Below are positions 1-64,000 of a stretch of 64,000 nt of DNA, one piece after another. The position numbers were made by a program, and so were the translations under genes. The notes under the pieces were generated by a model. It was not told the DNA's origin and did not search any database. It worked only from the letters and a program-made list of their open reading frames with translations. Position 1 is the stretch's first letter. Each line of letters starts with the position of its first letter. Source of the stretch: Deinococcales bacterium (lineage in GTDB: Bacteria > Deinococcota > Deinococci > Deinococcales > JAAFIG01); the NCBI GenBank assembly GCA_013298595.1, contig JAAFIG010000003.1, positions 164,460-228,459 on the forward strand, given 5' to 3'.

Positions 1-189
1 GTGGTATCAGAACTCGAGTGGATAACACAACGCAACCGTCTGAAAGCAGCCCATCAGAACATTGTGCAACTGGCTCGAGAAACCCCTGTTTGGGATGAGG
101 ATAGTGCCAGTGGTTTAATGGCAACTCTAGCTCATGTGAGCTACCATCTTGGCGCTGTTAAACAGATTATCAAATTGGCTCGAGGATAA
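1..189 (+). CDS. C-terminal fragment of a possible DinB-like protein (5' end outside window)
   Basis: Only the last 62 codons are present; the frame is open from the first base and stops with TAA at 187-189. The ending ATLAHVSYHLGAVKQI resembles the C-terminal helix of DinB/YfiT-type four-helix proteins, where a histidine in an H-x-x-YH-x-G pattern binds metal. That assignment rests on this short motif only. The GTG at base 1 is probably internal rather than the true start. The fragment carries CTCGAG twice in frame, so it looks native to this chromosome. Confidence 0.4.
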   Translation: MVSELEWITQRNRLKAAHQNIVQLARETPVWDEDSASGLMATLAHVSYHLGAVKQIIKLARG

Positions 190-285
190 CATACCAAACA
201 ACCTAAAACCCTTGACTGGATGAGCTTAACCTAACCTGTGTCAGCATCTGGAACTTTTTGCTGCAACTTCTCGTACAATAGGAAC

Positions 286-885
286 GTGACGGATCTCTCC
301 GCTTCTGCAACCACCCCGCGTTCCGACTATCTCGAGTATGGTGTGCTCGAATCGTTGCGTTTAGGCGATCAAAGTGCGTGGGAGACTCTTATCTGCACGC
401 ATCAGGATCGTATGTTAAATTATTTGTATCATCTCGAAGGAAATTACGAAGAAGCCTTGGATTTATGCCAAGAAACTTTCTTTCGGGCTTGGAAAGGCAT
501 TGCCACCTTTCATTCAGGCGAACCTTTGCTACCTTGGTTGTACACCATTGCCCGCAATGTACAAATCGAAAAACACCGCCGTAAAACCCATTCGCAATTC
601 TCACTCGAGGAAGCGTTTGAAGATCATGGCTTTGAAGTCAGTAACAACACTGACTCGAGTGTCAAAAATGCTGAAGTTGCCCAAAATGCCGAACGCGTCC
701 GCATTGCACTACTCCAATTACCTGAAGAGTACCGTAGCGCTGTGCTGCTGCGCTTTATGCAAGACCAAAGTTACGAAGAGATTGCCCAAGTACAACAATG
801 CGCGGTTGGCACTGCTAAATCTAGGGTTTTTCGCGGTAAAGAATTACTCGAGAAAGCCTTAGCGGGGCGGGTGATGATCGAATGA
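286..885 (+). CDS. ECF-type RNA polymerase sigma factor
   Basis: This is a group IV (extracytoplasmic function) sigma factor of about 200 residues. Region 2 is recognisable from the stretch ending DLCQETFFRAWKGI, followed by LPWLYTIARNVQIEKHRR. Region 4 has LPEEYRSAVLLRFMQDQSYE and the helix-turn-helix end GTAKSRVFRGKELLEKAL. I place the start at the GTG at 286 because TACAAT at 274-279 lies 6 nt upstream, the leaderless pattern seen before many genes here. The frame is also open to a GTG at 238, which would add 16 residues. The stop overlaps the start of the next gene (ATGA), so the two are translationally coupled and the downstream membrane protein is probably its regulator. Which genes it controls cannot be told from the sequence. 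Confidence 0.85.
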   Translation: MTDLSASATTPRSDYLEYGVLESLRLGDQSAWETLICTHQDRMLNYLYHLEGNYEEALDLCQETFFRAWKGIATFHSGEPLLPWLYTIARNVQIEKHRRKTHSQFSLEEAFEDHGFEVSNNTDSSVKNAEVAQNAERVRIALLQLPEEYRSAVLLRFMQDQSYEEIAQVQQCAVGTAKSRVFRGKELLEKALAGRVMIE

Positions 886-2279
886 CACTCGAGGAAGTAC
901 TGCACAACTTACCTGCACCAAAGATGCCACCGAATTTCGCCCGAGAAACTTCGGAACAAATTGCTTTAGCCGCTAAACTTGGCGCTATCGAAGTGCTACA
1001 TCCACCACCTGATTTTGCTGCACGCTTAGCCAATAAAATTGCAATTGATACCACCGAAAATCCAATCAAGCACCTCGAGCCAGTCACAGTACCGCCTGTA
1101 TTTGCCGCTCATCTTGCTGCCCGTATAGCCCAAGATGCCAATCCATTCCAAGTTTTAACACCCATTATTGCTCCTGCGAATTTTGCCCATCGGGTCGCCA
1201 AGCGTATTGCTCAAGATGCCGCTATTAACGCCGAGCATAACCGTACACCCTTATATTTTCTTGCTACATTACTTGCAGGAGCCGCTTTCACCCTTGGTGC
1301 ATTTACTTGGCGTGACGCTCAAGCCGCAGGCGTGGCATTGTTTGAAGTGCTGCGTTCATTGCCAGAAAGCTTATTGTTACCCGTTGCCTTGGTTGCCACG
1401 TTTGCCGTGGTGGCTACCTTAGCCAAACAAGTTGCCCGTTTCCCAGCTGCCATAGCTGCTTTTGGTATCGCCGCTGCCTTTGTTGTACCGCAACTCTCGA
1501 GTTGGTTTGGTAATACCCGAGTGGAAGGCTCAACTCAAATCTCGAGTATCGTCCGATTCGCAGGCGATATTACCGTGGCTTCCGAAGTACGTGGCGATGT
1601 CATTGCCATTGGTGGCAGTGTCCGACTCGAACCAGGCGCTCGAGTTTCTGGTAGAGTTCTGACTTTCCTAGGCGATGTGAATCTACCCGAAGGCAGCAGT
1701 GCCCAAGCGGTCAGTGCTATTTTAGGTAACCTCAGCAGTAAAAGCCAAAATCAAAGCCAAAAAAGTTTTTCCTTACCTGGACTAAGCGCTGCCAATGCGC
1801 TCAAACCACTACAAAACCTAATCGGAGCAAATACATGGCAATGGTGGTACTTAGGCTTACTCGGTGCCCTCAGTGTGGCATTGCTCTTACAACCACGCCT
1901 GCGTAACAGCCTCGAGTTACCCTTCAAACAAGATGCAGGACGTTCCCTCGGACTTGGTTTACTACTGGTATTTCTGACAGTACCACTGGTCGCCCTTGGT
2001 GGCATCAGTGTGCTTGGAACACCATTTGCTTTGGTACTTGGTGTATTTACCTTATTAACATTCACCAGTGGTGCAGCCATCGCCATTGTCAGCAGCGGCA
2101 CAAGCCTCACTCGAGCCACACACTTAGGAGCCATTCTGCCAGGGCTTGGACTATTTGCCCTGAGTATGCTTTATCCCGCCATAGCCGTGGTTTTTTGGTT
2201 ACTACTCGGCGCTTGGGGCGCAGGAGCATTACTGATTGCTATTCGAGACGGTGCGTTGGTACGAGCAGTCGCCGAATAA
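882..2279 (+). CDS. Membrane protein with N-terminal repeats and bactofilin-like middle; probable anti-sigma partner
   Basis: 465 residues, start ATG overlapping the sigma stop by 4 nt. Residues about 1-110 hold four degenerate copies of a P-P-x-F-A-x-x-L/V-A-x-x-I-A motif (for example PPNFARETSEQIA, PPDFAARLANKIA, PPVFAAHLAARIA, PANFAHRVAKRIA). Three hydrophobic segments follow at about 124-205, then a soluble stretch resembling a polymer-forming (bactofilin-like) beta-helix with DVIAIGGSVRLEPGARVSG. The protein ends with four or more further membrane segments. No zinc-finger anti-sigma motif (HxxxCxxC) is present. Position and coupling suggest it holds the sigma factor at the membrane; that is inference. 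The repeats could each be a short sigma-binding helix. Similar bactofilin-plus-membrane proteins exist, but I do not know a named family with this N-terminus. Confidence 0.7.
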   Translation: MTLEEVLHNLPAPKMPPNFARETSEQIALAAKLGAIEVLHPPPDFAARLANKIAIDTTENPIKHLEPVTVPPVFAAHLAARIAQDANPFQVLTPIIAPANFAHRVAKRIAQDAAINAEHNRTPLYFLATLLAGAAFTLGAFTWRDAQAAGVALFEVLRSLPESLLLPVALVATFAVVATLAKQVARFPAAIAAFGIAAAFVVPQLSSWFGNTRVEGSTQISSIVRFAGDITVASEVRGDVIAIGGSVRLEPGARVSGRVLTFLGDVNLPEGSSAQAVSAILGNLSSKSQNQSQKSFSLPGLSAANALKPLQNLIGANTWQWWYLGLLGALSVALLLQPRLRNSLELPFKQDAGRSLGLGLLLVFLTVPLVALGGISVLGTPFALVLGVFTLLTFTSGAAIAIVSSGTSLTRATHLGAILPGLGLFALSMLYPAIAVVFWLLLGAWGAGALLIAIRDGALVRAVAE

Positions 2280-2304
2280 TCCAAAAACCCGTACACTATC
2301 AACC

Positions 2305-3543: not shown

Positions 3544-3575
3544 ACGTTAATTATAGCATTTGAAAATTCAAAAAT

Positions 3576-3611
3576 AGATAGAAATGGCTTAGGTCTAAGC
3601 CATTTCTATCT
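3576..3611. repeat. Perfect 17-bp inverted repeat
   Basis: AGATAGAAATGGCTTAG at 3576-3592 is repeated as its exact reverse complement at 3595-3611 with a two-base spacer. It lies upstream of the dead antitoxin promoter and before the next plus-strand gene. On the minus strand it is followed by TATTTTTG, so a transcription terminator is possible, but no obvious minus-strand gene ends here. An operator or a small mobile-element remnant are alternatives. Confidence 0.6.
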
Positions 3612-27601: not shown

Positions 27602-27628
27602 GTAGGGCGAGGCGTGCCTCGCCGCTAC
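27602..27628. repeat. GTAGGGCGAGGC palindrome between convergent genes
   Basis: GTAGGGCGAGGC-GT-GCCTCGCC-GCTAC is a near-perfect hairpin of the GTAGGGGCG family. It lies between the converging monooxygenase and gamma-glutamyltransferase genes and may also act as a bidirectional transcript end. Confidence 0.7.
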
Positions 27629-35889: not shown

Positions 35890-37245
35890 CTAGCGAATTT
35901 CCGAGACCAATTCAGCCGCTAATCCAACATACATTTCAGGGCGCATCTCGAGAAGGCGTTTCTTATCAGCTTCTGGAATCTCGAGGCTTTGGATAAAAGC
36001 TCGCATGGTTGCTGCATCCACGTTTTCACCTCGAGTTAAATCCTTCATGCGTTCATAGCCGTTTGGTACGTTGTATTTTCGCATCACGGTTTGAATCGGT
36101 TCGGCGAGAAGCATCCATTCATGTTCGAGATCAGCGGCGATTCTGGTGTGGTTCACTTCGAGTTTAGCAATGCCTGCTTTTAAGCTCGAGAAAGCAATGA
36201 CTGTGTGCGCTAAGCCCACACCAATGTTTCGCAGTGCGCTCGAGTCGGATAAATCGCGTTGCAACCTCGAGACTTCAAGTTTAGAGGCAAGATGAGCAAA
36301 GGTCGCATTGGCAAGTCCTAAGTTCGCTTCGGCATTCTCAAAATCTATGGGATTAACTTTGTGTGGCATGGTACTCGAGCCGATTTCACCCGCCACGACG
36401 CGTTGTTTGAAATATCCAAGGCTGATGTACTGCCAAATATCCTGAGCGAATCCAAGGGCGATTTGATTGAAACGCATTAAATTATGAAAAACCTCGGCAA
36501 TAAAATCATGTGATTCAATTTGCGTGGTTAAAGGGTTGTACGTTAAACCCAAACCAGTTACAAAAGCTCGAGCTAATTCACGCCAATTTGCATTGGGGTA
36601 CGCACTGGTGTGTGCATTAAAATTCCCCACTGCCCCAGCGAATTTCCCAAGATATTCTTGAACCTCGAGTTGCTTAAACTGGCGTTGCCAACGGTACACA
36701 AACACTGCCAGTTCCTTACCCAAAGTGGTTGGACTGGCAGGCTGTCCGTGCGTGCGTGCCATCATCGGCACGGACTGATGCAACACAGCCAAACTCGAAA
36801 CAGAACTCATCACCTCGAGCAACAACGGTTGCACCTGTGTTTTCAAAGCATCACGTAACATCAATGCATACGCTAAATTGTTAATATCCTCGGACGTACA
36901 CGCAAAATGCACAAACTCACCAACATCTTCTAAACTCGAGCCTTTGAATTTCTCACGAATAAAATACTCAACTGCTTTCACATCATGCCGCGTGGTGCGT
37001 TCGATCTCCTTAATTCGTTCAGCATCAGAAACCGAAAAATTGGATTTGAAATTCTCGAGCAACACAATCTCAGATTGAGTCAAAACACGAATACTCTCGA
37101 GCTGAGCTTTTGTTAAAAACTCCAACCACTCGAGTTCAACAACCACACGATACTTCATCAAAGCAAACTCAGAAACAAAATCCTCGAGCGGCTGAGTCAC
37201 CCGAGCATACCGCCCATCAATCGGAGAAATACTTTTGATACTCAT
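35890..37245 (-). CDS. purB: Adenylosuccinate lyase
   Basis: PurB removes fumarate from SAICAR and from adenylosuccinate, acting twice in purine synthesis. 451 residues, close to the E. coli-type enzyme. The signature loop is GEIGSSTMPHKVNPIDFENA with the catalytic Ser; the catalytic His is in ARTHGQPASPTTLGKE; the N-terminus has SPIDGRYARVTQPLEDF. The ribosome-binding core GAGG is the end of a CTCGAGG 6-8 nt before the ATG. It is preceded by a 460-bp gap with three repeat elements and followed by a toxin-antitoxin pair 22 bp away. Confidence 0.96.
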   Translation of the reverse strand: MSIKSISPIDGRYARVTQPLEDFVSEFALMKYRVVVELEWLEFLTKAQLESIRVLTQSEIVLLENFKSNFSVSDAERIKEIERTTRHDVKAVEYFIREKFKGSSLEDVGEFVHFACTSEDINNLAYALMLRDALKTQVQPLLLEVMSSVSSLAVLHQSVPMMARTHGQPASPTTLGKELAVFVYRWQRQFKQLEVQEYLGKFAGAVGNFNAHTSAYPNANWRELARAFVTGLGLTYNPLTTQIESHDFIAEVFHNLMRFNQIALGFAQDIWQYISLGYFKQRVVAGEIGSSTMPHKVNPIDFENAEANLGLANATFAHLASKLEVSRLQRDLSDSSALRNIGVGLAHTVIAFSSLKAGIAKLEVNHTRIAADLEHEWMLLAEPIQTVMRKYNVPNGYERMKDLTRGENVDAATMRAFIQSLEIPEADKKRLLEMRPEMYVGLAAELVSEIR

Positions 37246-37269
37246 ACGAACCTCGAGAACAATGTTTTT

Positions 37270-37384
37270 GTAGGGGCGAACCCCTGTGTTCGCCCTGTGA
37301 CCAGCGATTGAACTACAATCTTGATATTCTCAATTTTTGACCATTGAATTGGATTCTCAGGGAGGGTACAAGACCCTCCGCTAC
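37270..37384. repeat. GTAGGGG element copy A (115 bp)
   Basis: Left hairpin GTAGGGGCGAACCCCTGTGT then TCGCCC; about 60 bp of AT-rich middle with GATTGAACTACAATCTTGAT; right hairpin AGGGAGGGTACAAGACCCTC then CGCTAC. The termini form a short inverted repeat (GTAGgGG/CcgCTAC). First of three head-to-tail copies between purB and purM. Confidence 0.85.
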
Positions 37385-37402
37385 GAAAAACATCCATAAC
37401 CC

Positions 37403-37531
37403 GTAGGGGCGAACCTCGTGTTCGCCCTGTGGTTAGCGATTGAATTACAATCTCAATATTCTTGATTTGTTTTTGGGTGCTGAACAATTGAATGTTGTTT
37501 CCAGCAGGGCGATGACAAGCATCGCCCCTAC
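37403..37531. repeat. GTAGGGG element copy B (129 bp)
   Basis: Left hairpin GTAGGGGCGAACCTCGTGTT then CGCCC; right hairpin AGGGCGATGACAAGCATCGC then CCCTAC. The middle shares GCGATTGAATTACAATCT with copy A. Copies A and B are separated by 18 bp containing CATCCATAACCC. Confidence 0.88.
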
Positions 37532-37561
37532 GAAAGGCTGAATTGACATTGCCCTTAACCC

Positions 37562-37691
37562 GTAGGGGCGAACCTCGTGTTCGCCCAGTGACCAACGATT
37601 GTATGATTTTTTCAAATCTCGAGACTTGTTTTTCCAGACCTGACCATTGAATTTTGTTCTTGGCAGGGCGGATATGGGAGTCCACCCCTAC
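37562..37691. repeat. GTAGGGG element copy C (130 bp)
   Basis: Left hairpin as in copy B (GTAGGGGCGAACCTCGTGTT then CGCCC); right end AGGGCGGATATGGGAGTCCA then CCCCTAC. The middle shares ACCATTGAATT with copy A. It ends 18 bp before the purM stop. Confidence 0.85.
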
Positions 37692-37708
37692 AGAATGGAT
37701 GTTGAATT

Positions 37709-40012
37709 TCATTGCAGCACCACACCTTCGTTGACTCGAGGGATGATTTCGCCAATGAGGTATACGTCGTCGCCGAGTATCTCGAGGGCTTGTATTAATT
37801 GTTGTTCTGGAATGATGACGGTCATACCGATGCCCATGTTGAAGGCGTGGTATGCGTCTCGTTCGGTTAATTTGGCTCGCTCGAGAATCAGTTTGAAAAT
37901 GCTGGGGATGCGCCATGTGCCGCGTTTGATCCAAGCAGTTTTATTTTTGGGTAGGGTGCGTGGAATGTTGTCCCAGAGTCCGCCGCCTGTGATGTGTGCC
38001 ATGGCACGAATATCGATACCTGATTCCTCGAGGGCATTGATGTGGTCTAAGTACGAACGGTGTGGCATGAGGAGCGCTTCGCCGATGGTCATGCCTTCAA
38101 GATCAGCTCGAGGTTTGTTCCAATTCAGTCCTGCGAGGGTTTTTCGGGCGAGGCTGTATCCGTTGGTGTGCAGTCCACTCGAGGGGAGGGCAAGGATGCA
38201 ATCGCCAATTTCGACTCGAGTACCATCTATGAGCTTGCCATGCTCGAGACTGCCGACCATTGTGCCTGCTACGTCTGATTCACCGCTTTTGTAGACTCCG
38301 GGCATTTCGGCTGTTTCACCGCCAAGAATCACGCAATTGGCGGCTCGGCAGGCTTCTGCCATGCTCGAGACGATGGTGGCGACCCATTCGGCTTTGAGGG
38401 TGTTGGCTGCGATGTAATCCAGAAAGAACAATGGTTTTGCACTTTGAACAAGTATGTCGTTGATACCATGATTGACGATGTCTGCGCCGATTCCTGTCCA
38501 ATTGCCTACTTTGGCTGCTACCATTGTTTTTGTGCCGACACCATCGGTACTGGCAACCAATAATGGGCGTTGCATACTTTGTAAACTCGAGATGTCGAAC
38601 ACACCACCGAATGCTCCAACACCTGCGATCACTCGAGCATCGTGGGTGGATCGTACTGCGTCTTGCATCAGGGTGACTGCTCGAGTTCCTTCGGCGATGT
38701 TGACTCCTGCTTGGGCGTAGGCGTCGGCTGGGTTAGGCGAAGCCATGTTGGTTTGACCAATGTCGGTTCGGTAGTGTGCGCCTTCAAAGCCGATCTTCGA
38801 GATTCCTGCATAGGCTTTTTTCAGGGCTTGCTCGAGGTTTTTGCCTGTGGCACTGATACTGAGTACTCGTCCGCCACTTGAGAGGATTTTGTTGTTCTCG
38901 AGTTTTGTGCCTGCATGAAATGCCATCAGGTCGTCTGGGAGATGCTCGAGTCCGTGTACTTCAAAACCCGTTGTGTATTCTTCTGGGTAGCCACCACTTG
39001 CCATGACCACGGTGGCACAAGATTCGTTTTTCCAGATTGGCTCGAGGTTAGCTAAATTTCCATCTATGCAAGCATCAATAATCTCGAGTAAATCTGTTTC
39101 GAGCAGCGGCAATTGCACTTGGGTTTCTGGGTCACCAAACCGAGCGTTAAACTCGAGGACACGGATGCCATCTTCGGTGAGCATAACGCCTGGGTACAGC
39201 ACACCTTTGAATGGTTCACCTCGAGCTGCCATACCCTCGAGTATCGGTTGCACAACGCTGATTCGGATTTCCTCGAGGAGTTCAGCACTGATGTCTGAGG
39301 CTGGGGCGTATGCTCCCATGCCGCCTGTATTCAAGCCATGATCTCCGTCCAAAGCGCGTTTATGATCCCTTGCGGGTGGCATCATCTTGGCGGTTGTTCC
39401 ATCACAAAAACACAAGGCGCTGACTTCGCGTCCAGAAAGGCGTTCTTCAATCACCACAGTTTGTCCAGCTTCGCCAAAAGCTCCAGAAAACATTTGTGTG
39501 ATGGCATACTCGGCTTGTTCTACCGTATCGCAAATCAGTACACCTTTTCCTAATGCCAGCCCATCGGCTTTAATCACAAAACCTTCGGTATTAAAAGGAA
39601 AGTCACGCACGACTTCTAAGCCATCCTCGAGATTCTGACAAACCGCAAAATCGGCTGTTGGCACATTGCAAGAACGCATCATGGTTTTGGCAAAGGCTTT
39701 GCTCCACTCGAGTTTAGCGGCGGCTTGACTCGCCCCGAAAACCCGTAATCCTTTTTGTTCAAAGACATCCACAATCCCAGCTGCCAGTGGGTCGTCTGGT
39801 CCAATGATGGTGAGATCAATTTTTTGTGACACTGCAAACTCGAGCAATGCTGGTATATCCGTGGCTTTGATTGGTACATTCTCGAGTTTTGAATGTGAAG
39901 CTGTGCCACCGTTACCTGGGGCAACAAAAACTTTTTTGGCTCGAGGGCTTTGTAATACTTTCCATGCAATCGCGTGTTCGCGTCCGCCACCACCAACAAT
40001 CAAAATTCGCAT
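37709..40012 (-). CDS. purD-purM: Fused GAR synthetase / AIR synthetase (PurD-PurM)
   Basis: One 767-residue chain. Residues 1-422 are PurD (GAR synthetase, ATP-grasp): MRILIVGGGGREHAIAWKVL, IKADGLALGKGV and VLEFNARFGDPETQ. Residues 423-767 are PurM (AIR synthetase), opening at an internal Met: YAQAGVNIAEGTRAV, then ASTDGVGTKTMVA, GGETAEMPGVY and HITGGGLWDNI. There is almost no linker. Domain order matches yeast Ade5,7 and the front of animal GART; such fusions are rare in bacteria. PurN is in the same cluster but separate. ATG 40012 is used; the upstream frame is translated repeat. The gap to purF is 76 bp. Confidence 0.95.
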   Translation of the reverse strand: MRILIVGGGGREHAIAWKVLQSPRAKKVFVAPGNGGTASHSKLENVPIKATDIPALLEFAVSQKIDLTIIGPDDPLAAGIVDVFEQKGLRVFGASQAAAKLEWSKAFAKTMMRSCNVPTADFAVCQNLEDGLEVVRDFPFNTEGFVIKADGLALGKGVLICDTVEQAEYAITQMFSGAFGEAGQTVVIEERLSGREVSALCFCDGTTAKMMPPARDHKRALDGDHGLNTGGMGAYAPASDISAELLEEIRISVVQPILEGMAARGEPFKGVLYPGVMLTEDGIRVLEFNARFGDPETQVQLPLLETDLLEIIDACIDGNLANLEPIWKNESCATVVMASGGYPEEYTTGFEVHGLEHLPDDLMAFHAGTKLENNKILSSGGRVLSISATGKNLEQALKKAYAGISKIGFEGAHYRTDIGQTNMASPNPADAYAQAGVNIAEGTRAVTLMQDAVRSTHDARVIAGVGAFGGVFDISSLQSMQRPLLVASTDGVGTKTMVAAKVGNWTGIGADIVNHGINDILVQSAKPLFFLDYIAANTLKAEWVATIVSSMAEACRAANCVILGGETAEMPGVYKSGESDVAGTMVGSLEHGKLIDGTRVEIGDCILALPSSGLHTNGYSLARKTLAGLNWNKPRADLEGMTIGEALLMPHRSYLDHINALEESGIDIRAMAHITGGGLWDNIPRTLPKNKTAWIKRGTWRIPSIFKLILERAKLTERDAYHAFNMGIGMTVIIPEQQLIQALEILGDDVYLIGEIIPRVNEGVVLQ

Positions 40013-40027
40013 TTTCTGCCCCTCACC

Positions 40028-40051
40028 GTAGGGGCGGGGCTTGCCTCGCCC
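40028..40051. repeat. GTAGGGG-family hairpin in the purD leader
   Basis: GTAGGGGCGGGGCTTGCCTC then GCCC, a stem with one G:T-type change. It lies 16-39 bp upstream of the purD start codon and the purD frame is open through it back to a GTG at 40057. It could mask or expose the ribosome-binding site. Confidence 0.75.
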
Positions 40052-40088
40052 TTGCACCCACGTAATTTATTTTGTGCTTTAACTTCTT

Positions 40089-45957: not shown

Positions 45958-46216
45958 CATAAAAATTGTGCATATTGGGCAGGGATTTCAGTCGGGTTAA
46001 CAATTTGGTGCCAATGGGTGGCATCAAAACTTCGCTCGGGGTGAAGGTGGGCAAATCCGAGAGTGTGCTTGGGTTTGTATCTCCATTCATGTGCGAAGAC
46101 CCAAGGTAAGCCGTAGCATAAAGATACCTTTAATCTTTAACTTTTGACCTTTTCTCTTGTTTTCGCTGTGGCATAAGCTGTGAGCAGGAAGCAAAACTCG
46201 AGGGCATGGGGTGGGT

Positions 46217-46250
46217 GATTACGGTTTGATTACGGTTTGAGGATTAAATT
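46217..46250 (+). promoter_or_regulatory. Direct-repeat activator site and promoter 1
   Basis: GATTACG at 46217-46223 and again at 46228-46234 (11-bp period), then exactly 10 bp to TAAATT (46245-46250). Same layout as the sites at 47097 and 50453. It precedes the papain-like protease gene; the last CTCGAG of the flank is at about 46200. Confidence 0.75.
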
Positions 46251-46322
46251 AAAACGAGTAAAGTAGAGGATGCGTAGACGACATGGACTTTGGCACAAAA
46301 AATTTTGATGTTGGGGGAATAA

Positions 46323-47090
46323 GTGGAAGAGAGAATTTACAATTGCTTGCCTTCAGTTAGATTGGTAACAGATTGGGATTATTCCATAGCCTATGCTTCA
46401 ATTAGAATGTCTGCAACGCCAGATTACCAATTACCTGCTTCCCACAACCTACATAAACGTTGGTGGAAAATACAAAACCAAGGCAATACAGGTGCTTGTG
46501 TAGGATTTGCACTTGCAGACTCAGTCTTACGCTGGCATTTTGTGCAGTGCAAAAAAATTATAAAATCTGAATCCTTATCTACACGCTTCATCTGGATTGC
46601 TGCAAAAGAAACAGATCAATACAGAGATTTTCCAACTTCATTTATAGAGCAAGAAGGCACCAGTCTGAAATCCGCCCTCCAAATTGCACAGCGCCTTGGA
46701 GTTGTACGAGATCGTGATTTTCCTGACACCATTTATATGGGAAGAAGTTCCACATTTTATGCCAATGCGGCAAGACTTAGGATCAGTAGCTTTTTTTTCT
46801 TACATAAAGATTTCAGTATTTGGAGAAAATGGATATTTGATCATGGTCCGATTTTAGTTAGGCTCGAAGTTGATAGTCATTTTGCTAGTGCGAACAAAAA
46901 TACAGTTTTAAAAAATTTTGATTCTAATTCTGTACTTGGATCTCATGCTGTTGCAGTGGTCGGTTTTGAAGGTGAGAACTTTATTATTCGGAATAGTTAC
47001 GGCATCAATTGGGGTAATAGAGGATTCGTCATTGCTAGTCAAGACTACCTAACTCAAGCCGTGTCAGAGGCTTTTGGTGTAACGATTTAG
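46323..47090 (+). CDS. Papain-like (C1) cysteine protease domain protein
   Basis: 255 residues, no signal peptide. The catalytic Cys is in QNQGNTGACVGFALADSV, the His in GSHAVAVVGFEGENF, and the Asn in RNSYGINWGNRGFV, the C1A order. The first 45 residues (LPSVRLVTDWDYSIAYAS) may be a short pro-part. Start GTG 46323 has GGGGGA 5 nt upstream. A 25-codon frame from ATG 46283 overlaps the start. The gene is AT-rich without CTCGAG. Transcription is expected from the direct-repeat promoter about 70 bp upstream. Confidence 0.8.
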   Translation: MEERIYNCLPSVRLVTDWDYSIAYASIRMSATPDYQLPASHNLHKRWWKIQNQGNTGACVGFALADSVLRWHFVQCKKIIKSESLSTRFIWIAAKETDQYRDFPTSFIEQEGTSLKSALQIAQRLGVVRDRDFPDTIYMGRSSTFYANAARLRISSFFFLHKDFSIWRKWIFDHGPILVRLEVDSHFASANKNTVLKNFDSNSVLGSHAVAVVGFEGENFIIRNSYGINWGNRGFVIASQDYLTQAVSEAFGVTI

Positions 47091-47096
47091 GAATCG

Positions 47097-47130
47097 GATT
47101 ACGTTTTGATTACGGTACAATTTTTATAGT
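47097..47130 (+). promoter_or_regulatory. Direct-repeat activator site and promoter 2
   Basis: GATTACG at 47097-47103 and 47108-47114, spacer TTTT, then 10 bp (GTACAATTTT) to TATAGT (47125-47130). TACAAT inside the spacer is an alternative -10. The site precedes the 155-residue gene by 30 bp. Confidence 0.75.
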
Positions 47131-47159
47131 CATACTCGAAGTTTTCAAAGGAGAATAAT

Positions 47160-47627
47160 ATGGCATTTAGTATTCAAACCGACTCAAGTGGCAATCTTAT
47201 TTACGATGACGGGAGTAAACGGGTCTATATATACGGCTGCAATTTACATGTGACAGAAAATAAGCTTCCGCCAGGACAAGGGTTAATTCCAAGTCGTGCA
47301 AGTATTTCTAGTGATTCAACGGTAGTAGATGCTGTGTGTCCGTGGCAACCACTGCTATTGCAAGATTGGGATAACAAAACCAATGGGCTTAGGGGAACCT
47401 TTGATAATGACTATCGAAGTAGCATAAAAAAATCAACTGCCACAGAGGCAAAGCAGCAACACTTGCGGTATCAATTCTGGCAGCTTTATATTTTCGTAGG
47501 CGACACAACAACAGCGACAGACCGTTCGATTACGAGTTTGTGGCGACAAATCACTGGTACAATAGCACCTATTTATACGCCGAGTTCAAGTACAGGGACT
47601 AACCCTCCCCCAGCAGTTGGTCCGTAA
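47160..47627 (+). CDS. Hypothetical protein with Ser/Thr/Pro-rich tail
   Basis: 155 residues I do not recognise. It opens MAFSIQTDSSGNLIYDDGSK, lacks a signal peptide, and ends with a low-complexity tail (YTPSSSTGTNPPPAVGP). The middle has several Trp (WQPLLLQDWD, RYQFWQLYIF). AAGGAG lies 7 nt before the ATG. It is the second gene with the direct-repeat promoter. It ends one base before the stop of the convergent regulator gene. Confidence 0.6.
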   Translation: MAFSIQTDSSGNLIYDDGSKRVYIYGCNLHVTENKLPPGQGLIPSRASISSDSTVVDAVCPWQPLLLQDWDNKTNGLRGTFDNDYRSSIKKSTATEAKQQHLRYQFWQLYIFVGDTTTATDRSITSLWRQITGTIAPIYTPSSSTGTNPPPAVGP

Positions 47628-50432
47628 CTACTCAAACAAAGCCATAGCTTTGGTGTTATCCGAAATTTTATCAAACATCAAGTTATTTTTTTTAATTAAA
47701 TCACTGGCTTTCTCTTCAACCCAGTGATTTAATATTTTTTGTCCATATAGGAATTGTAAAACAGTTATCACCTTTTCAATCTCATTTTTCAAAATAAAAA
47801 GATTCGCCAGAATGTATAGAGAGAACTGCAAAGGTAAAGGTAAATTTTTTTCAATAGATTTTTTTATAGAAAATAATATCTCTTTTTCGGCAGAAACATA
47901 ATCCATTTCATAGATTTTTAATTCAGATAATGCAATTTTATAGAAAACTTGTGTGTTTTCTGAAACAAACGCAAAATTTTCAACAAAATATGCAGCTTGT
48001 CTTTTTGCTTCTTTAATATTTTTGTTTTTTGTATAAAAAAATATTTGATAAATTTTATTCATTTGAAGAACATGATTTTCTTTATATTTTAATGCCGCAA
48101 GCTCATTTCTCAATAACATTTTTTCAAGAGAAATTCGATTTTTTTCAAAAAAAATATAAAATTGAATTACTGCTAATTCTAAATAAATTAAATTCATGTT
48201 ATTTTTTGTGGATTTATATATTTTTAAAGCATCATTATAAAATCTTATCGCCTTTTTATAATTACCTTGAAATACATAAATTTCCGCAATATTATGCTTT
48301 GCCATTGCTCTTCTTGTTATATTTTGATTTGAATTAGCAATATCTTCCATTTCAGTAAAATATTTTATTGCTAAGTCAAGTTTTAATAAAGTCCGAGATA
48401 TAACACCTAGAACATTTAAAATCTTTAATCGAAAGTTGTCATTTAATCTTTCTGAGAAATCATAAACCATTTCTGCATATAAAGTAGCTTTTTCATAAGA
48501 ATTATATCGGTGTAACAACCATGCTGCATTGATTCCCAATACCCCCAAAGCCTGTATTAATTCACTATCCTCTGCTCCTGTCTTCTCTGTCAACACCATC
48601 CTCGGCTCGAGAACCTGTATGGCAGCTTCAAACAACTGCACACCTTCCTCAAATCTCGCTCTTGCATCAAATAAACTGACCACATCTTGCAATCGGTCGA
48701 ACCGCGCTAAATCTGGGTGTTCGCATAACCAACCCCAAGCCACCTTAATATTCTCGAGGTCGGTTTCAAATGCTCCTAATACCATTCCCGCTTGGACTGT
48801 TCGCACCAGTGGCGCATTCTGCTCGAGCCAGCTGAGGAACACTTCGGCATGGGCGGCTTTGGCACTTTTGGCTTCTTTGGGGATACTCTCGAGGACTTCT
48901 AAACTGTACTGGGCAATCAGCGGATGAAGTCTGTACCGTCCGTTTTGTTGATTCTGCACCAAGGATTTTGCTACTAATGCCGCAATCACTGTGAAATTGC
49001 TATTCATGACTTGAAGTGCCGCTACCCTCGAGAAGCCATCACGAAATGTAGCTAGGCGCATCAACCCTAGGCGTTGCGGGTTGCTCAGCAGCGACCATGA
49101 CCAGTTAAACACGGCTCGCATACTGCGGTGACGCTCGCGCCCACCCTGAGCCTCGAGTGCATCAAGGTGTTGTTGTAAGGCTTCTAAGATTGCCTCGAGT
49201 GGTAAAACTGTAATTAAAGCTGCTGCCAATTCGATTGCCAGTGGAAATCGCTCGAGTAAATTACAAATTTTAATTGCGGTTTTAGTATGCCAAACAAAAT
49301 TTGTACCTGTGCGCCGACACGCTAAGTCCAGTAACTCGAGGGCGGATTCATCGTCGGCAAAACCCTCAAGTGGGAAAACTGTTTCTCCTAGTACTCCAAG
49401 GCGCTCGCGGCTGGTTAGAAGAATTTTGAGGTTAGGGCAGGATTCAAGTAGATGTTCTAAAGTTTCGCCAATGCTGACCAGATGCTCGGCGTTATCAAGC
49501 AGCAAGACAATGTTTTTTAAGCCAATTTGGGTTTTGAGTTGCTCGAGTGGTTCAGAAGTGCTTTCACGGTAACTCATGGCGCGTAAACACGCACTGAGAA
49601 CATCAGTTGGCTCGAGAATTGACTCGAGTGGTATAAAAAAAGTGCTGTGGGTTTCGGGTAAACCACGCAGCACCTCAAGCGCAAGACGGGATTTACCTGC
49701 GCCACCATAACCAACAATCGTGATGAGTCGCTGATTTTGCACTAAAGTTTCGAGAGCGGCTTGTTCGCTACGAAACACAAACCCAGAAATAGCACTAGGC
49801 AAGTTCCGCACTATGACTTTACTTCGATCTGGGATTTGAATATTCAAATCCAGCAGTTCTTGACGTACCACTACCACTAAATCATGCCTGCAATCCTCGA
49901 GAATACCAAATAAAACCAGTAAATCCTCTGACTCGAGTGGCACAGTTTGAGAAAGCCCATGTGCGGCAATAGCATGTTGTGAAGCGGCTGGTAGGTCAGC
50001 TTGTTCTAAAGCAATTAAGGCTAAGTGCAAATAAGCCTTAGTCACTCGAACTGTAATTAATTCTCGAGTTACCAACACCCATTCTTCAAATTCACTTGAG
50101 TCGAATTGCAAACCATCCAAGAAAACCCCTGAATACAATGCCACTGCACCAGCTTCATCACCAGCATCCAATTTCTCGAGGAGCAAACTGGCATCGCACG
50201 AAATAGCACATGCCAAGGTTTTTTGTTCCTCGAGCAGTACACCAGCCGTTCGGAGTTGTTGCAAAGCAATTCGCAAACTCGCAGCGGCATCTGAGGCTTG
50301 CCCCCACAATAATTCTCTGGCATGACTTCTGGGTTTTCGACCCTCGAGTGCCAAATACGCTAATAGTGACAGGGTTTTAGGGCGTGTTAAAGCATTATTC
50401 TCGAGTGCTAATTTCCCCAGTGTGATCAGCAT
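47628..50432 (-). CDS. BTAD/NB-ARC/TPR transcriptional activator (SARP/AfsR-like)
   Basis: 934 residues. About 1-70 form a winged helix (LLAYLALEGRKPRSHARELL); 80-200 a BTAD; the NB-ARC ATPase has P-loop GYGGAGKS at 241-248, Walker B LLLDNAEHL and LLTSRERLGVLGE. From about 560 to the end are TPR repeats (QNITRRAMAKHNIAEIYVFQ). SARP-type proteins bind direct repeats near -35 and recruit polymerase. Codons for residues 1-609 carry frequent CTCGAG; 610-934 carry none and are AT-rich, suggesting a replaced 3' part. TAGAAT with TG extension lies 6 nt before the ATG. Its own promoter overlaps site 3. Confidence 0.88.
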   Translation of the reverse strand: MLITLGKLALENNALTRPKTLSLLAYLALEGRKPRSHARELLWGQASDAAASLRIALQQLRTAGVLLEEQKTLACAISCDASLLLEKLDAGDEAGAVALYSGVFLDGLQFDSSEFEEWVLVTRELITVRVTKAYLHLALIALEQADLPAASQHAIAAHGLSQTVPLESEDLLVLFGILEDCRHDLVVVVRQELLDLNIQIPDRSKVIVRNLPSAISGFVFRSEQAALETLVQNQRLITIVGYGGAGKSRLALEVLRGLPETHSTFFIPLESILEPTDVLSACLRAMSYRESTSEPLEQLKTQIGLKNIVLLLDNAEHLVSIGETLEHLLESCPNLKILLTSRERLGVLGETVFPLEGFADDESALELLDLACRRTGTNFVWHTKTAIKICNLLERFPLAIELAAALITVLPLEAILEALQQHLDALEAQGGRERHRSMRAVFNWSWSLLSNPQRLGLMRLATFRDGFSRVAALQVMNSNFTVIAALVAKSLVQNQQNGRYRLHPLIAQYSLEVLESIPKEAKSAKAAHAEVFLSWLEQNAPLVRTVQAGMVLGAFETDLENIKVAWGWLCEHPDLARFDRLQDVVSLFDARARFEEGVQLFEAAIQVLEPRMVLTEKTGAEDSELIQALGVLGINAAWLLHRYNSYEKATLYAEMVYDFSERLNDNFRLKILNVLGVISRTLLKLDLAIKYFTEMEDIANSNQNITRRAMAKHNIAEIYVFQGNYKKAIRFYNDALKIYKSTKNNMNLIYLELAVIQFYIFFEKNRISLEKMLLRNELAALKYKENHVLQMNKIYQIFFYTKNKNIKEAKRQAAYFVENFAFVSENTQVFYKIALSELKIYEMDYVSAEKEILFSIKKSIEKNLPLPLQFSLYILANLFILKNEIEKVITVLQFLYGQKILNHWVEEKASDLIKKNNLMFDKISDNTKAMALFE

Positions 50433-50452
50433 GTGAGAATTCTAACAGTTTT

Positions 50453-50486
50453 GATTACGCCTCGGTTACGGTACACAAATTATATT
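50453..50486. promoter_or_regulatory. Direct-repeat activator site and promoter 3 (divergent)
   Basis: GATTACG (50453-50459), CCTC, GGTTACG (50464-50470), then 10 bp to TATATT (50481-50486), reading rightward. On the other strand the site covers the -35 region of the regulator's own promoter (-10 TAGAAT at 50444-50439), so both activation of the right-hand gene and self-control are plausible. Confidence 0.75.
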
Positions 50487-50577
50487 GCGCTCAAGTCAAA
50501 TTAAAGTACAAAAAATAAAAAGACAACAATTAATAAAGCTGAACCCAAACAATCGAGATTTCTCTGGAGGTACGAAT

Positions 50578-52551
50578 ATGAACTCTAAACTGAAAAACCT
50601 TATTTACTGTCTTATAGTATGCCTGACTGCTACTAGCCAGTCAGTGGCACAAACTGACATCACAGATATTTCGTTTTCCTTTGGACCAGACACACCATTA
50701 GTACTTGAGTGGACAGAGTTTCAACAAGGTTATCGCCTTCGAGTTGAAAATACATCAAAAAATAAGAGGGTTCTTGAGTGGGTAGCTGCACGGATTAAAC
50801 CTAGTGATGGGTTTTCAGAATCAATTTTAAAAATGATCAAAATATCAAAAGAAGAGTCATGCAAAACTATATCCTCAGCAAGCGGGTCTAACTCTCAAAA
50901 AATATGTGGGTATGTTGTAGCCAATTTATCTAACTTACAGCCTCGCAGCTCAAATTATATTACGTTACAAGTTAGCTCTAAACAATTTAAACTTCCAACG
51001 CGTCCTATAAAGTTCGTTTTAACATTGAACGAAACAAATTATGTTTCAGCATCACGAATCATTATCATTAAACCACCAGCTATACAAACTGACACCGATA
51101 AGCGAACTATTAGAATCTATACCTTTAACTTCTTAAATTGGAATCTCACTACATTAACTGGATTGAACTTACTTCAATCTGACTTATTTACAATTAATTC
51201 AATAAAAAGGCTTTGTGGGCGCAGTAATTTTTTGCAAACCGTGTGTATTGCTGATAGCACATTTAGTACTTTTAATGGGGATTTCGACCCAACTGACTAT
51301 GAACCACTAATTTTTCAAGGTACAAGTTCAAACCTATATGCAAAAATCAACTGGAATACGAACAATACTGGGCTGATATTAGACTTTGAGAAAGCTAAAA
51401 ATGAAACTTTCCCCGAAGGAGATTATGAAGCAACTTCAACCCGATTTGTAGGAACTGATCCGAGTAAATCGGTTAGTTTAAAGCTTGAAGTGAGGTCACA
51501 CTGGTTTATTGTTCTTTTACTGATTTTCATTGGACTATTTCTTGCCCTTGTTTTACGAATCCTACAGGGTAGCCCCGTCGAAAATCTTTTGCATCGAGTA
51601 GATAAAGCCAAGCTCAATTTTATTGATACTACAGGGGTATTACCATTTGAAAGCAACTATAACATCAAAAAAGCGATCTATTTACACGCATGGGATTTAA
51701 TTGAAAAAATCCAAAAACTTCGATTCCAAAACTCAGGAATAGTAACAGCCAACACTGTTGGATTTAGTGATTTGGAAGAGCAAGTTAAAAAATATGAAGA
51801 CCTGCCTAATCAATGGCATAAATTTATGCTCAATCTAAAAAACATTAAGAGAATAAACGGAAATCAGATTCAAATCCCGCAGAACCTACAACTACCAACA
51901 TCTTTTCAAAAGCAGTTAAGTGCCTCTCAAAGTCAAGATCTCAAAGTAGAAATATTAAACGGAGCAAGCATAAGCAACGCAAGCAAACAAGTTACACCTA
52001 CATATCTTGCAAGTTTCTTTGAAGAAATTGAAAATAGATTTGACCTAGCTAAAACAATAGTCACGGCAAATCCATCAGCTAATCAAAATACTGGAATACG
52101 TGTCTTAATTAAAAAATCATGGATTATCACAACTTGCTTGATTATTTCGGCTATTTTTATTTACCTCATTACTCATGAAGCAAATTCCAATACTCGGGAA
52201 TGGCAAGCCAAAGTCCTTATTTTCTGCATAACTCTCACCTTGGTCAGTTGGTTATGGACTCGAGTTATCTGGATCATCCAATGGTATTCGATGATCTTCA
52301 TAGAATTTCTTTCACCAAAAAAGCATCCTAATCAACCCTCTTTAATCAATATCAACTGGTGGGATACTTTACCTATCTTTATTGCAATCTTAGTTGCACT
52401 GATCAATGGGTTAAATGAGTTCTATCTTAAACTTTCGCCAACACCGCTGCTTCAACAACTCTTTTTCATAGCATGGGGTTTTGGTTCGACCACAGCAGTA
52501 CAAGCCCTCTTTATAATTTTAGAGAAATCACCCCTAGGACGTTATTTCTAG
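50578..52551 (+). CDS. Large membrane protein of unknown function
   Basis: 657 residues. A signal peptide (LIYCLIVCLTATSQSVAQ) leads to a periplasmic domain of about 300 residues, then a membrane segment (WFIVLLLIFIGLFLALVLRI), a cytoplasmic stretch of about 190 residues, and four further membrane segments near the C-terminus (IITTCLIISAIFIYLIT, VLIFCITLTLVSWLW and others). No family recognised. GGAGGT before ATG 50578 fixes the start. CTCGAG occurs only once, near the 3' end. Expression is expected from direct-repeat promoter 3. Confidence 0.7.
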   Translation: MNSKLKNLIYCLIVCLTATSQSVAQTDITDISFSFGPDTPLVLEWTEFQQGYRLRVENTSKNKRVLEWVAARIKPSDGFSESILKMIKISKEESCKTISSASGSNSQKICGYVVANLSNLQPRSSNYITLQVSSKQFKLPTRPIKFVLTLNETNYVSASRIIIIKPPAIQTDTDKRTIRIYTFNFLNWNLTTLTGLNLLQSDLFTINSIKRLCGRSNFLQTVCIADSTFSTFNGDFDPTDYEPLIFQGTSSNLYAKINWNTNNTGLILDFEKAKNETFPEGDYEATSTRFVGTDPSKSVSLKLEVRSHWFIVLLLIFIGLFLALVLRILQGSPVENLLHRVDKAKLNFIDTTGVLPFESNYNIKKAIYLHAWDLIEKIQKLRFQNSGIVTANTVGFSDLEEQVKKYEDLPNQWHKFMLNLKNIKRINGNQIQIPQNLQLPTSFQKQLSASQSQDLKVEILNGASISNASKQVTPTYLASFFEEIENRFDLAKTIVTANPSANQNTGIRVLIKKSWIITTCLIISAIFIYLITHEANSNTREWQAKVLIFCITLTLVSWLWTRVIWIIQWYSMIFIEFLSPKKHPNQPSLININWWDTLPIFIAILVALINGLNEFYLKLSPTPLLQQLFFIAWGFGSTTAVQALFIILEKSPLGRYF

Positions 52552-52699
52552 AATTTTATATATTAAAAACTCGAGAATACTACCAACGCAGCATCGAAAT
52601 ACTCATTACTATGCAACCTAACAAAAAGTGTGTTTCATTGGAGCTATAGGGTTACATTTGAATTGATGAGATTCGAGAGTGGAATACTTGGAGAATATC

Positions 52700-53419
52700 A
52701 TGCCACAAAAATCTGCCTATACTCACCAAGATGATCATAATCAACATATGGTTGCTTCGTATTTAAATGTACGGCTTGCCATCGGCATTCTTGCAGGAGC
52801 TTTACCGATTTTCATGCTGCTGATTCGCTGGTTATACAAAACAGACATGCAAGAATCAGTCAGTGCGTTTTATCACGTCTTACCTGCACGAAACTGGTTT
52901 GTGGCAACACTTTGTTGCGTAAGTATTTTTTTAGTTTGTTATCGAGGCTATTCAGCAAGACCAAACGTTTTATTTTTACGAAGTATTAGCGAAACAACTT
53001 TGCACAGAGTTATGGGAGCAGCGGCTTTTGGTGTTGCAATGTTACCAACTAAACATCCAAGTTGTACGATAAAGTGTCCATCTTACTGGTCTCAGTTTGA
53101 TGAAATTATTGCAATTTTTCATCTTTTTTGTGCATTTACTTTGTTTGCTGCGATGGCACTTGTTGCTTTGTTTTACTTCCCAGTTTTTCAAGGTAAAACA
53201 AAAAAATTGAGCCAAAAAATGCAAGCGCAAAATGCACATATCTATAGGTATTGTGGGATTACAATTGTAGCTATTGGTGGTGTTTGGGTCGTTTTACAAA
53301 TTTTTAATCTACACTTTATCCCACTTTTCTGGGTAGAGCTTGTTTGCATTATAGCTTTTAGTGTCGCATGGATAGCAAAGAGTCATTTTCTTCGCCGCTT
53401 GACAAAGCAGTTGAAATAA
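52700..53419 (+). CDS. Multi-pass membrane protein
   Basis: 239 residues with about six membrane segments. The loop ESVSAFYHVLPARNWFVATL resembles a widespread uncharacterised membrane family that has an S-x-S-A-Y-Y-H motif followed by a membrane helix. GGAGA lies 6-7 nt before ATG 52700. No CTCGAG. No direct-repeat site was found upstream. Its place between island genes suggests a shared origin rather than a proven shared role. Confidence 0.7.
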   Translation: MPQKSAYTHQDDHNQHMVASYLNVRLAIGILAGALPIFMLLIRWLYKTDMQESVSAFYHVLPARNWFVATLCCVSIFLVCYRGYSARPNVLFLRSISETTLHRVMGAAAFGVAMLPTKHPSCTIKCPSYWSQFDEIIAIFHLFCAFTLFAAMALVALFYFPVFQGKTKKLSQKMQAQNAHIYRYCGITIVAIGGVWVVLQIFNLHFIPLFWVELVCIIAFSVAWIAKSHFLRRLTKQLK

Positions 53420-53502
53420 TGAGGAGGCAACTATAGCAGTGACCTTTTTTCAATTTGTTCAATCACTATAACTCAAGCAATTCTTTTGTCAAAGGAGTAA
53501 TA

Positions 53503-54057
53503 ATGGCTTTCAAACTTGCAATTGATGCTGGGCATGGTTTTGGCAATGTTGCTTCAGATCGTTTTGATTCTGGTGCCTCTGGTGGAAATCTCCAAGAAGC
53601 CGATGTTGTGTTGCTCTGGGCTTTAACGGGTCGTTGGGTGTTTAAGGCTCGTAATCTGGATACATGGTTAACTCGAGATGATGATACCGATGTTGCACCA
53701 CTTGGAACTCGAGATGAGCGGGCTAAAGCGGCTGGTTGTACGCATTATCTGAGTCTGCATTGTAATTCAGCTTCTGCCAGTGTTTCGGGTGTTGAAGCGT
53801 TTTATCGTGATGCTGTGGATAAAGCTTTTGCACAAACTGCGTTATCTTGTGCTGTGCAAGCGCTTGCCTTACCAAATCGTGGGGTGAAAAGTGAAAGTAG
53901 TACCAAGGTTAAGCGTTTATCAGTGATGGATTTTAAGGGTACAGCAACGTTACTCGAGCTTGGTTTTATTACTAATAAATTGGATCGGGTGCGGATGATG
54001 AATCGGGATGTGCGAATTCGGTTTTGGGAGTTATTAGCCAATAGCTTCCTCGAGTAA
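53503..54057 (+). CDS. N-acetylmuramoyl-L-alanine amidase (Amidase_3)
   Basis: 184 residues covering only the catalytic domain. Zinc and catalytic residues appear in LAIDAGHGFG (His), NLQEADVVLLW (Glu), YLSLHCNSAS (His) and TLLELGFITN (Glu). No signal peptide or cell-wall-binding domain is present, so it needs holin-like or other export, or acts on cytoplasmic turnover products. Small amidases of this shape occur in phages. AAGGAG 7 nt before the ATG sets the start. CTCGAG reappears in its second half, marking the island edge. Confidence 0.88.
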   Translation: MAFKLAIDAGHGFGNVASDRFDSGASGGNLQEADVVLLWALTGRWVFKARNLDTWLTRDDDTDVAPLGTRDERAKAAGCTHYLSLHCNSASASVSGVEAFYRDAVDKAFAQTALSCAVQALALPNRGVKSESSTKVKRLSVMDFKGTATLLELGFITNKLDRVRMMNRDVRIRFWELLANSFLE

Positions 54058-61681: not shown

Positions 61682-61795
61682 AATGCGTGGCAACGATGGT
61701 ACCTTGAGCTTAGCTGGTCGTACAAAAAAATGATAATACTAATCGCTGGCAATTTTTAAAGCCAAAGTCTAAAGCTATCAGGTATTGTGGCACCT

Positions 61796-63319: not shown

Positions 63320-63341
63320 ACAAGGCTATATACTCCAGATT

Positions 63342-63890
63342 ATGGATTTAACGTTTCGTTTATATCAACCAGAGGATAACGCTGTTTTTTGGCAACTCCG
63401 CAATCAAGTTTTACCTGCCGATGAAAGCAAAGCCTACTGGTTGGAACGCATTGAAAATGCAGATACCACAATCCAAGAAATCGCCATTGTCGCTCAGCTC
63501 GAGCAGCAAGCCATTGGTTTTGTGCATTTGCAACGTCGGCAAAGCTGGGGCGTTGGACGTTGGCAAATCCATCTAGCTGTGCTTGCCAGTAACCGTCGTC
63601 AAGGGGTTGGTACCGCTCTCTGGCAGCGACTACAAACCACCACGCAATGGCTCGAGGTGCGTGAACTGAACTGCCCATTACGTAACCCTGAACCTGCTGC
63701 CTATGCCTTTCTCGAGCAACACTTCTTTACAATTCACGAGCGTTCAATTCGTAGCCATTTAACCTTGCCACAAGAACTAGATTTGGGATTGATACAAAGA
63801 CTCGAGCAGCAAAACTATGTTTTTACGACTTTACTCGAGTTGGGCGATACCCCAACTAACCGTGAAAAACTATATTACGTCGGGTGCTAG
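63342..63890 (+). CDS. GNAT-family N-acetyltransferase
   Basis: 182 residues. The acetyl-CoA loop is VLASNRRQGVGTALWQRL, matching R/Q-x-x-G-x-G/A. The N-terminus FRLYQPEDNAVFWQLRNQV is typical. About 60 C-terminal residues resemble a second, incomplete GNAT repeat. Substrate unknown. TATACT lies 7 nt before the ATG and 22 bp separate it from the antiporter. Confidence 0.85.
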   Translation: MDLTFRLYQPEDNAVFWQLRNQVLPADESKAYWLERIENADTTIQEIAIVAQLEQQAIGFVHLQRRQSWGVGRWQIHLAVLASNRRQGVGTALWQRLQTTTQWLEVRELNCPLRNPEPAAYAFLEQHFFTIHERSIRSHLTLPQELDLGLIQRLEQQNYVFTTLLELGDTPTNREKLYYVGC

Positions 63891-63935
63891 TGGATGACTT
63901 GCCAAAATTGTCTCAAAAGCGGAGGATGCAAATCT

Positions 63936-64000
63936 ATGAGAACCCGCACCCTCCTCGGCAAGTATATCATCTCTGACATCTTCATCGCTGTTTTCACAGT
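63936..64000 (+). CDS. Start of a permease-like gene (3' end outside window)
   Basis: Only 21 codons, MRTRTLLGKYIISDIFIAVF then T. GGAGGA lies 9 nt upstream. The start of a basic residue group followed by a hydrophobic helix, with KYIISDIFIAVF, resembles the first segment of LptF/LptG (YjgP/YjgQ) lipopolysaccharide-export permeases. Too little is present to be sure. Confidence 0.4.
   Translation, partial: MRTRTLLGKYIISDIFIAVFT

What the first reader, a model, noticed from the sequence alone, without database searches (positions are those of the whole stretch)
1..64000. CTCGAG is a genome-wide hyper-iterated palindrome
17 copies in the first 2.46 kb against about 0.5 expected, and similar density over most of the window, in all frames and both intergenic and coding DNA. 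Leu-Glu is written CTCGAG almost every time even though glutamate is otherwise often GAA. This is like HIP1 of cyanobacteria but with another core. Over-representation argues against simple restriction avoidance and for a role in methylation, repair, chromosome organisation or DNA uptake.
Basis: seen in the sequence. Interest (0 to 1): 0.85.

Follow-up and report, generated by a model that had tools for sequence, protein, structure and literature searches.

The report
Bacterial genome written with CTCGAG everywhere
An uncultured lineage of Deinococcales bacteria carries the six-letter palindrome CTCGAG about once every 170 bases across its whole genome, some 50 to 90 times more often than its base composition predicts and strongly enough to change its proteins, which looks like a previously undescribed non-cyanobacterial counterpart of the cyanobacterial HIP1 watermark whose cause is unknown.

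Summary
The window holds 406 CTCGAG and the genome 27,159 in 4.58 Mb (5.9/kb). In an 864 kb sample, observed/expected is 57 on a first-order Markov model, 93 with the sites masked and 71 on a masked second-order model. Density is flat across coding DNA, intergenic DNA and gene starts. All three frames carry it and there is no flanking consensus. It drives protein content: Leu-Glu is 2.3 times over-represented and 66% of it is CTCGAG, while Glu-Leu is 1.0. Sites are far better conserved than synonymous Leu-Glu codon pairs (66% against 4% between two species). Recent AT-rich islands lack it.

The lineage is uncultured Deinococcales: three genera of one family and one or two of a second carry it; a third genus of the second has none.

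It behaves like cyanobacterial HIP1, with another core, in another phylum, and denser. The site has no GC step, which the GmeC mismatch-repair model requires, and no methyltransferase of five Pfam families is shared by all carriers. XhoI-type restriction enzymes are absent. The best reading is a genome-wide site kept by a fixation bias of about 37-fold, probably through a sequence-specific DNA protein. The actual agent was not found.

The parts
1..64000 (.). 406 copies of the palindrome CTCGAG (mean about 1 per 158 bp), coding and intergenic, all frames
36001..40000 (.). densest 4 kb of the window (41 copies), over conserved purine-synthesis genes
46197..48605 (.). gap of 2,409 bp without CTCGAG at 35% GC: presumed recently acquired DNA
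50400..52258 (.). gap of 1,859 bp without CTCGAG at 35% GC: presumed recently acquired DNA
52570..53671 (.). gap of 1,102 bp without CTCGAG at 39% GC

Best explanation
CTCGAG is a HIP-type element: a bare six-base palindrome kept at about 6 per kb through the whole chromosome by a DNA-level fixation bias. SHOWN: the excess, its independence of coding status, frame, gene start and genome GC (45-60%), its conservation, its effect on proteins, and its restriction to part of the Deinococcales. DERIVED under a simple model of equal mutation rates: steps from any one-off sequence to CTCGAG are fixed about 37 times as often as steps away, equally in coding and intergenic DNA (scaled bias ln 37, about 3.6). 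INFERRED: the bias comes from a protein that recognises CTCGAG on double-stranded DNA. The most likely arrangement is a modification- or binding-marked site used in replication-coupled repair or recombination, so that mutations creating a site are retained and mutations destroying one are corrected or selected against. I put HIP-type at about 0.9. Given that, I put a methylation-coupled mechanism at about 0.4, a repair or conversion bias without methylation at about 0.25, chromosome organisation at about 0.2 and self/uptake recognition at about 0.15.
For: Excess of 57x (plain order 1), 93x (masked order 1) and 71x (masked order 2) in 864 kb. Every one-off neighbour lies within about 0.5-3x of expectation. 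Gain/loss ratio is 38 in coding and 35 in intergenic DNA. Density is 5.3-6.7/kb in every 50-bp bin from -300 to +600 of gene starts. Density is 5.8, 6.3, 6.1 and 6.8/kb in four genomes of one family at 45, 50, 54 and 60% GC. Leu-Glu dipeptides are 2.2-2.5x over-represented and the top dipeptide in all four. Exact conservation between two species is 66% of frame-0 sites against 22% of other hexamers and 4% of non-CTCGAG Leu-Glu codon pairs; for the third genome 45% against 10% and 4%. Changed sites are in the one-mismatch state less often than controls (0.26 against 0.43; 0.14 against 0.27), so one-step intermediates are short-lived. Spacing is more even than that of any of 150 control hexamers.
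Against: No responsible protein was identified. The DNA came from MAGs of 91-94% completeness, so a gene could be missing. Selection cannot be told from repair or conversion bias without polymorphism data. The G000-G001 comparison rests on 40 ortholog pairs and the G000-G003 comparison on 51. Part of the even spacing reflects short-range exclusion and the higher density of CTCGAG than of the controls.
Confidence: 0.85

Rival explanations
1. Cognate methyltransferase version of the HIP model: a solitary methyltransferase for CTCGAG (candidate: the C5 enzyme at G000:C15:67907-69034) marks the site, and methyl-directed repair or a methyl-dependent essential function drives its spread.
For: Elhai 2015 (PMC4390886) reports that every cyanobacterial genome with a highly over-represented palindrome has a methyltransferase able to act on it. 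The own genome's only C5 methyltransferase has no evident restriction partner beside it, and has close relatives in G001 (74%) and G012 (59%), all strong carriers. The non-carrier G004 has no C5 methyltransferase at all.
Against: G002 and G003, with the same CTCGAG density, lack an ortholog of it. No methyltransferase of PF00145, PF01555, PF02384, PF02086 or PF07669 found in the own genome has an ortholog in all carriers. CTCGAG has no GC step, so the published GmeC mismatch-repair variant cannot apply as written. If the C were methylated and deamination corrected by a Vsr-like patch, TTCGAG and CTTGAG should be depleted; they are 3.0x and 1.7x above expectation.
Confidence: 0.35
2. Architectural site: an abundant DNA-binding protein uses CTCGAG for chromosome folding, segregation or replication, and selection keeps about one site per 170 bp.
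For: Constant density over GC content and coding status. Pairs closer than 20 bp occur at 0.4 of expectation while 150 control hexamers average 1.0; inverted pairs of 4-GC control hexamers are only at 0.83. This fits a footprint.
Against: No 10-11 bp or nucleosome-like period in pair distances. No protein identified. Known site-specific organisers use far rarer and longer sites (own knowledge).
Confidence: 0.2
3. DNA uptake or self-recognition sequence spread by biased transformation, as in Neisseria and Haemophilus, in a phylum with competent members.
For: Abundant in coding and intergenic DNA and absent from recent islands. The Deinococcota include naturally competent Thermus and Deinococcus (own knowledge).
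Against: No flanking consensus: at most 0.023 bits per flanking position in the own genome. Six-base palindrome rather than a 9-12 base oriented motif. About six times denser than known uptake sequences (own knowledge).
Confidence: 0.12
4. By-product of restriction: either protection by an XhoI system or the residue left after avoidance of other palindromes.
For: Many other palindromes are nearly absent (GGCC at 0.01, GAGCTC at 0.02, TTCGAA at 0.01 of expectation), so restriction pressure is strong here.
Against: XhoI-type endonuclease genes are absent from both carrier families. Restriction lowers rather than raises its site: the genomes with an XhoI gene (G018, G042, G048) have fewer CTCGAG than most of their genus. 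Avoiding other words cannot lift one word 90-fold above expectation.
Confidence: 0.03

Closest known systems
HIP1 (GCGATCGC) of cyanobacteria
   Same: Short palindrome, extreme excess over the chromosome, coding and intergenic, clade-wide with exceptional non-carrying relatives.
   Different: Other core and length (bare 6-mer, no extension), other phylum, 5,900 per Mb against 855-1,418 HIP1 per Mb for Synechocystis and Thermosynechococcus. HIP1 itself occurs once in 864 kb here.
Alternate HIPs of cyanobacteria (GGCGCC, GGGATCCC, TCGATCGA, rCCGGy, GCsGC; Elhai 2015)
   Same: Different palindrome taking the place of HIP1, with comparable over-representation.
   Different: Those arose sporadically in single strains or small groups and those examined have a matching methyltransferase. 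CTCGAG is shared by several genera of two families and has no assigned methyltransferase. The three alternates unrelated to HIP1 (GGCGCC, rCCGGy, GCsGC) fit the GmeC model; CTCGAG lacks the GC step.
DNA uptake sequences (Neisseria DUS, Haemophilus USS)
   Same: Genome-wide repeated short words that also shape proteins (own knowledge).
   Different: Palindromic, shorter, without flanks and several times denser.
XhoI / PaeR7I restriction-modification (CTCGAG)
   Same: Same recognition sequence.
   Different: No XhoI-family endonuclease in the carrier families; sites enriched, not avoided.

Membership tests
HIP-type element (broad sense) | Palindrome strongly over-represented across the whole genome | tested here: met
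   93x masked order-1 and 71x masked order-2 expectation in 864 kb; 27,159 copies in the genome
HIP-type element (broad sense) | Present in coding and intergenic DNA, all frames | tested here: met
HIP-type element (broad sense) | Cognate methyltransferase in the genome | tested here: inconclusive
   Six methyltransferases found in the own genome, specificities unknown; none shared by all carriers
HIP-type element (broad sense) | G-methyl-C step inside the site (GmeC repair model) | tested here: not met
   CTCGAG contains no GC dinucleotide; model in PMC4390886
HIP1 proper | Sequence GCGATCGC in a cyanobacterium | tested here: not met
   1 copy in 864 kb; nearest named relatives are Deinococcales MAGs
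DNA uptake sequence | Oriented 9-12 base motif with flanking consensus | tested here: not met
   Flank information at most 0.023 bits per position in the own genome
DNA uptake sequence | Preferential uptake of DNA that bears it | not testable with these tools
   needs cells
XhoI restriction-modification | XhoI-family endonuclease (PF04555) | tested here: not met
   Absent from G000-G004, G008, G012, G016
Chi-type recombination site | Non-palindromic, strand-biased site | tested here: not met
   The word is its own reverse complement, so it cannot be strand-biased

The most novel reading that the evidence does not exclude
A genome-wide palindromic mark that does not depend on a DNA methyltransferase: an unknown protein of this Deinococcales lineage reads bare CTCGAG about every 170 bp, and its action on DNA is strong enough to insert thousands of extra Leu-Glu pairs into the proteome.
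Probability: 0.35. Interest if true: 0.87.

Novelty: new variant of a known kind. Interest (0 to 1): 0.74.

Why it matters
The function of HIP1 has been open since 1995, and every described case known to me is in cyanobacteria. An independent and stronger case in another phylum, with carrier and non-carrier relatives in one family, turns the question into a comparative test: find the gene that goes with the site. It also weighs against the GC-step repair model as a general account, and shows a DNA-level force visibly changing protein composition.

Tried and rejected
XhoI/PaeR7I system: no endonuclease in carriers. XhoI-linked methyltransferases as the driver: the gamma type from G009 has close relatives in only three of six genomes of one genus (g13) although all six have CTCGAG above the control word, and no clear one in the own genome. 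The gamma methyltransferase at G000:C11 is private to this genome. Vsr-like conversion of deaminated sites: one-off TTCGAG and CTTGAG are not depleted. Translation or codon choice: intergenic density equals coding density. Promoter element: flat around starts. Helical or nucleosomal periodicity: only the 3-base coding period appears. Local compensation when a site is lost: 67 of 231 have another site within 30 nt, about what random density gives. A search of viral contigs for CTCGAG-dense phages of this lineage gave mostly GC-rich phages and tandem repeats; nothing assignable. A scan of genome contigs with CarB named only two close relatives, both Deinococcales MAGs.

Full report
CHECK OF THE OBSERVATION. 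The window holds 406 CTCGAG, 17 of them in the first 2,460 bases; expectations are 7, 28 and 129 on Markov models of order 1, 2 and 3. High-order models underestimate the excess because the word dominates its own sub-words. With the sites masked, an 864 kb sample of the same genome has 5,039 copies against 54 (order 1) or 71 (order 2) expected, that is 93x and 71x; without masking 57x. Among 180 hexamers of equal composition in the window the best non-overlapping one has 40 copies and the median is 8. In the whole assembly (4.58 Mb, 68 contigs) there are 27,159 copies and only 15 of the reversed word GAGCTC.

WHERE IT OCCURS. Density is 5.76/kb in coding and 6.32/kb in intergenic DNA; all three frames are used. 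It is flat (5.3-6.7/kb) in every 50-bp bin from -300 to +600 around gene starts. The flanks carry at most 0.023 bits per position, so the element is the bare hexamer. AT-rich stretches with the look of recent acquisitions lack it: 2-kb windows at 25-35% GC have 0.75/kb (two windows only) and at 35-40% GC 2.5/kb, against 6-7/kb at 46-60% GC. In this window the gaps at 46.2-48.6, 50.4-52.3 and 52.6-53.7 kb are of that kind; elsewhere surface-polysaccharide-like genes are.

WHO HAS IT. The nearest named relatives of the window's CarB are two Deinococcales MAGs, which have 8-10 CTCGAG per kb in the DNA held. Over 61 genomes, all four of the own family f1 (three genera) have about 6/kb, genus g11 of family f2 has 6.2 and 7.7/kb, g8 of f2 has 3.6/kb, and g4 of f2 has 0.3/kb with no excess. 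Within f1 the density stays at 5.8-6.8/kb although GC runs from 45 to 60%.

EFFECT ON PROTEINS. Leu-Glu is 2.31 times over-represented (3,773 against 1,630), the highest of all dipeptides, while Glu-Leu is 1.01; the other three f1 genomes give 2.2-2.5. CTCGAG writes 66% of Leu-Glu against 6% expected from overall codon use. In xCT-CGA-Gxx contexts CGA is 90% of Arg codons against 14-21% elsewhere.

CONSERVATION. Between the two species of the own genus (40 ortholog pairs, 81% protein identity) 66% of frame-0 sites are identical, against 22% of other hexamers and 4% of Leu-Glu pairs written otherwise. With G003 (51 pairs, 65% identity) the figures are 45%, 10% and 4%. Changed sites are found one step away less often than controls (0.26 against 0.43; 0.14 against 0.27), so half-lost sites do not linger. 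One-off words as a group are at 1.5x expectation, not depleted, so the excess is not made by draining one neighbour. Under equal mutation rates the ratio of site to one-offs implies about 37-fold biased fixation, 38 in coding and 35 in intergenic DNA. This number is a model-based inference.

SPACING. Sites are more even than random at 100-200 bp (Fano 0.80; none of 150 control hexamers is below 0.95, though these are rarer words). Pairs 7-20 bp apart occur at 0.40 of expectation, controls 1.02 on average with one of 150 lower. Avoidance of hairpins explains part: inverted pairs of 4-GC control hexamers at 9-20 bp are at 0.83, CTCGAG at 0.43. There is no 10-11 bp or longer period.

SEARCH FOR THE AGENT. 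The own genome has six methyltransferase genes in five Pfam families: a C5 enzyme with no evident restriction partner, a beta-type enzyme beside a NotI-like endonuclease, a second beta-type, a TaqI-like gamma type, a IIG type and a D12 type. None has an ortholog in all of G001, G002 and G003. The C5 enzyme is the best candidate: 74% in G001, 59% in G012, and no C5 enzyme in the non-carrier G004; but it is missing in G002 and G003, which carry the site at full density. XhoI-family endonucleases occur in four genomes of the order, none in the carrier families. Their partner methyltransferases are of two unrelated types, neither with a clear counterpart in the own genome. These are MAGs of 91-94% completeness, other enzyme families were not searched, and different enzymes could share one specificity, so absence is not proven.

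COMPARISON. Elhai 2015 (PMC4390886) describes HIP1 and alternate HIPs in cyanobacteria, a methyltransferase able to act on each over-represented site, and a model in which repair is directed by G-methyl-C. CTCGAG works like a HIP in extent, palindromy, spread and clade pattern. It differs in core, phylum, density (5,900 per Mb against 855 and 1,418 HIP1 per Mb in two cyanobacteria), lack of a GC step and lack of an assigned methyltransferase. My literature searches found no report of a CTCGAG excess or of a HIP outside cyanobacteria, within a library that omits most subscription journals.

VERDICT. A real, extreme and old genome-wide feature; a HIP-type element of a new lineage with a new core. 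The force acts on DNA, not on translation or regulation. Its agent and benefit are not known. Chance, codon bias and XhoI restriction are excluded as sufficient causes; DNA uptake and promoter function are disfavoured. A methylation-coupled mechanism is possible but lacks the conserved enzyme that the cyanobacterial rule would predict.

Noticed in passing
window 31110-31180, 32465-32530, 34035-34070; also near 40023-40059 and 27605-27628: Short GC-rich palindromic dispersed repeats (for example GTAGGGGCGAGGCACGCCTCGCCCCTACG), present in many places in G000-G003 and G012 at 85-100% identity, some apparently read in frame near the N-termini of PurL and PurD.
   Followed up: partly
whole genome sample G000: Many other palindromes are almost absent: GGCC and TTCGAA at 0.01, GAGCTC at 0.02, CCGG at 0.09, GGCGCC and GACGTC at 0.01 of first-order expectation, pointing to heavy restriction pressure beside the one enriched word.
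   Followed up: no
L120 / L028:2418-3242 (G000:C34): NotI-like restriction endonuclease (PF12183, E = 3e-6) directly downstream of a beta-class methyltransferase, in a genome nearly free of GGCC.
   Followed up: no
L110:4339-6084 (G015): Apparently solitary XhoI-type gamma methyltransferase (51% identical to the one beside a broken XhoI gene in G009) in a genome with CTCGAG at 2.3/kb against 0.44/kb for GAGCTC; present in three of six genomes of that genus.
   Followed up: partly
G008 sample (L126, L127, L251, L252): Weaker form of the signal at 66% GC: CTCGAG 4.9x and TCGAGG/CCTCGA 5.6x, perhaps an early, late or extended version.
   Followed up: no
L143 (G009:C1:1095688-1096226): XhoI-family endonuclease gene that looks interrupted (one TGA and one TAG inside one match, two frames) next to an intact methyltransferase.
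   Followed up: no
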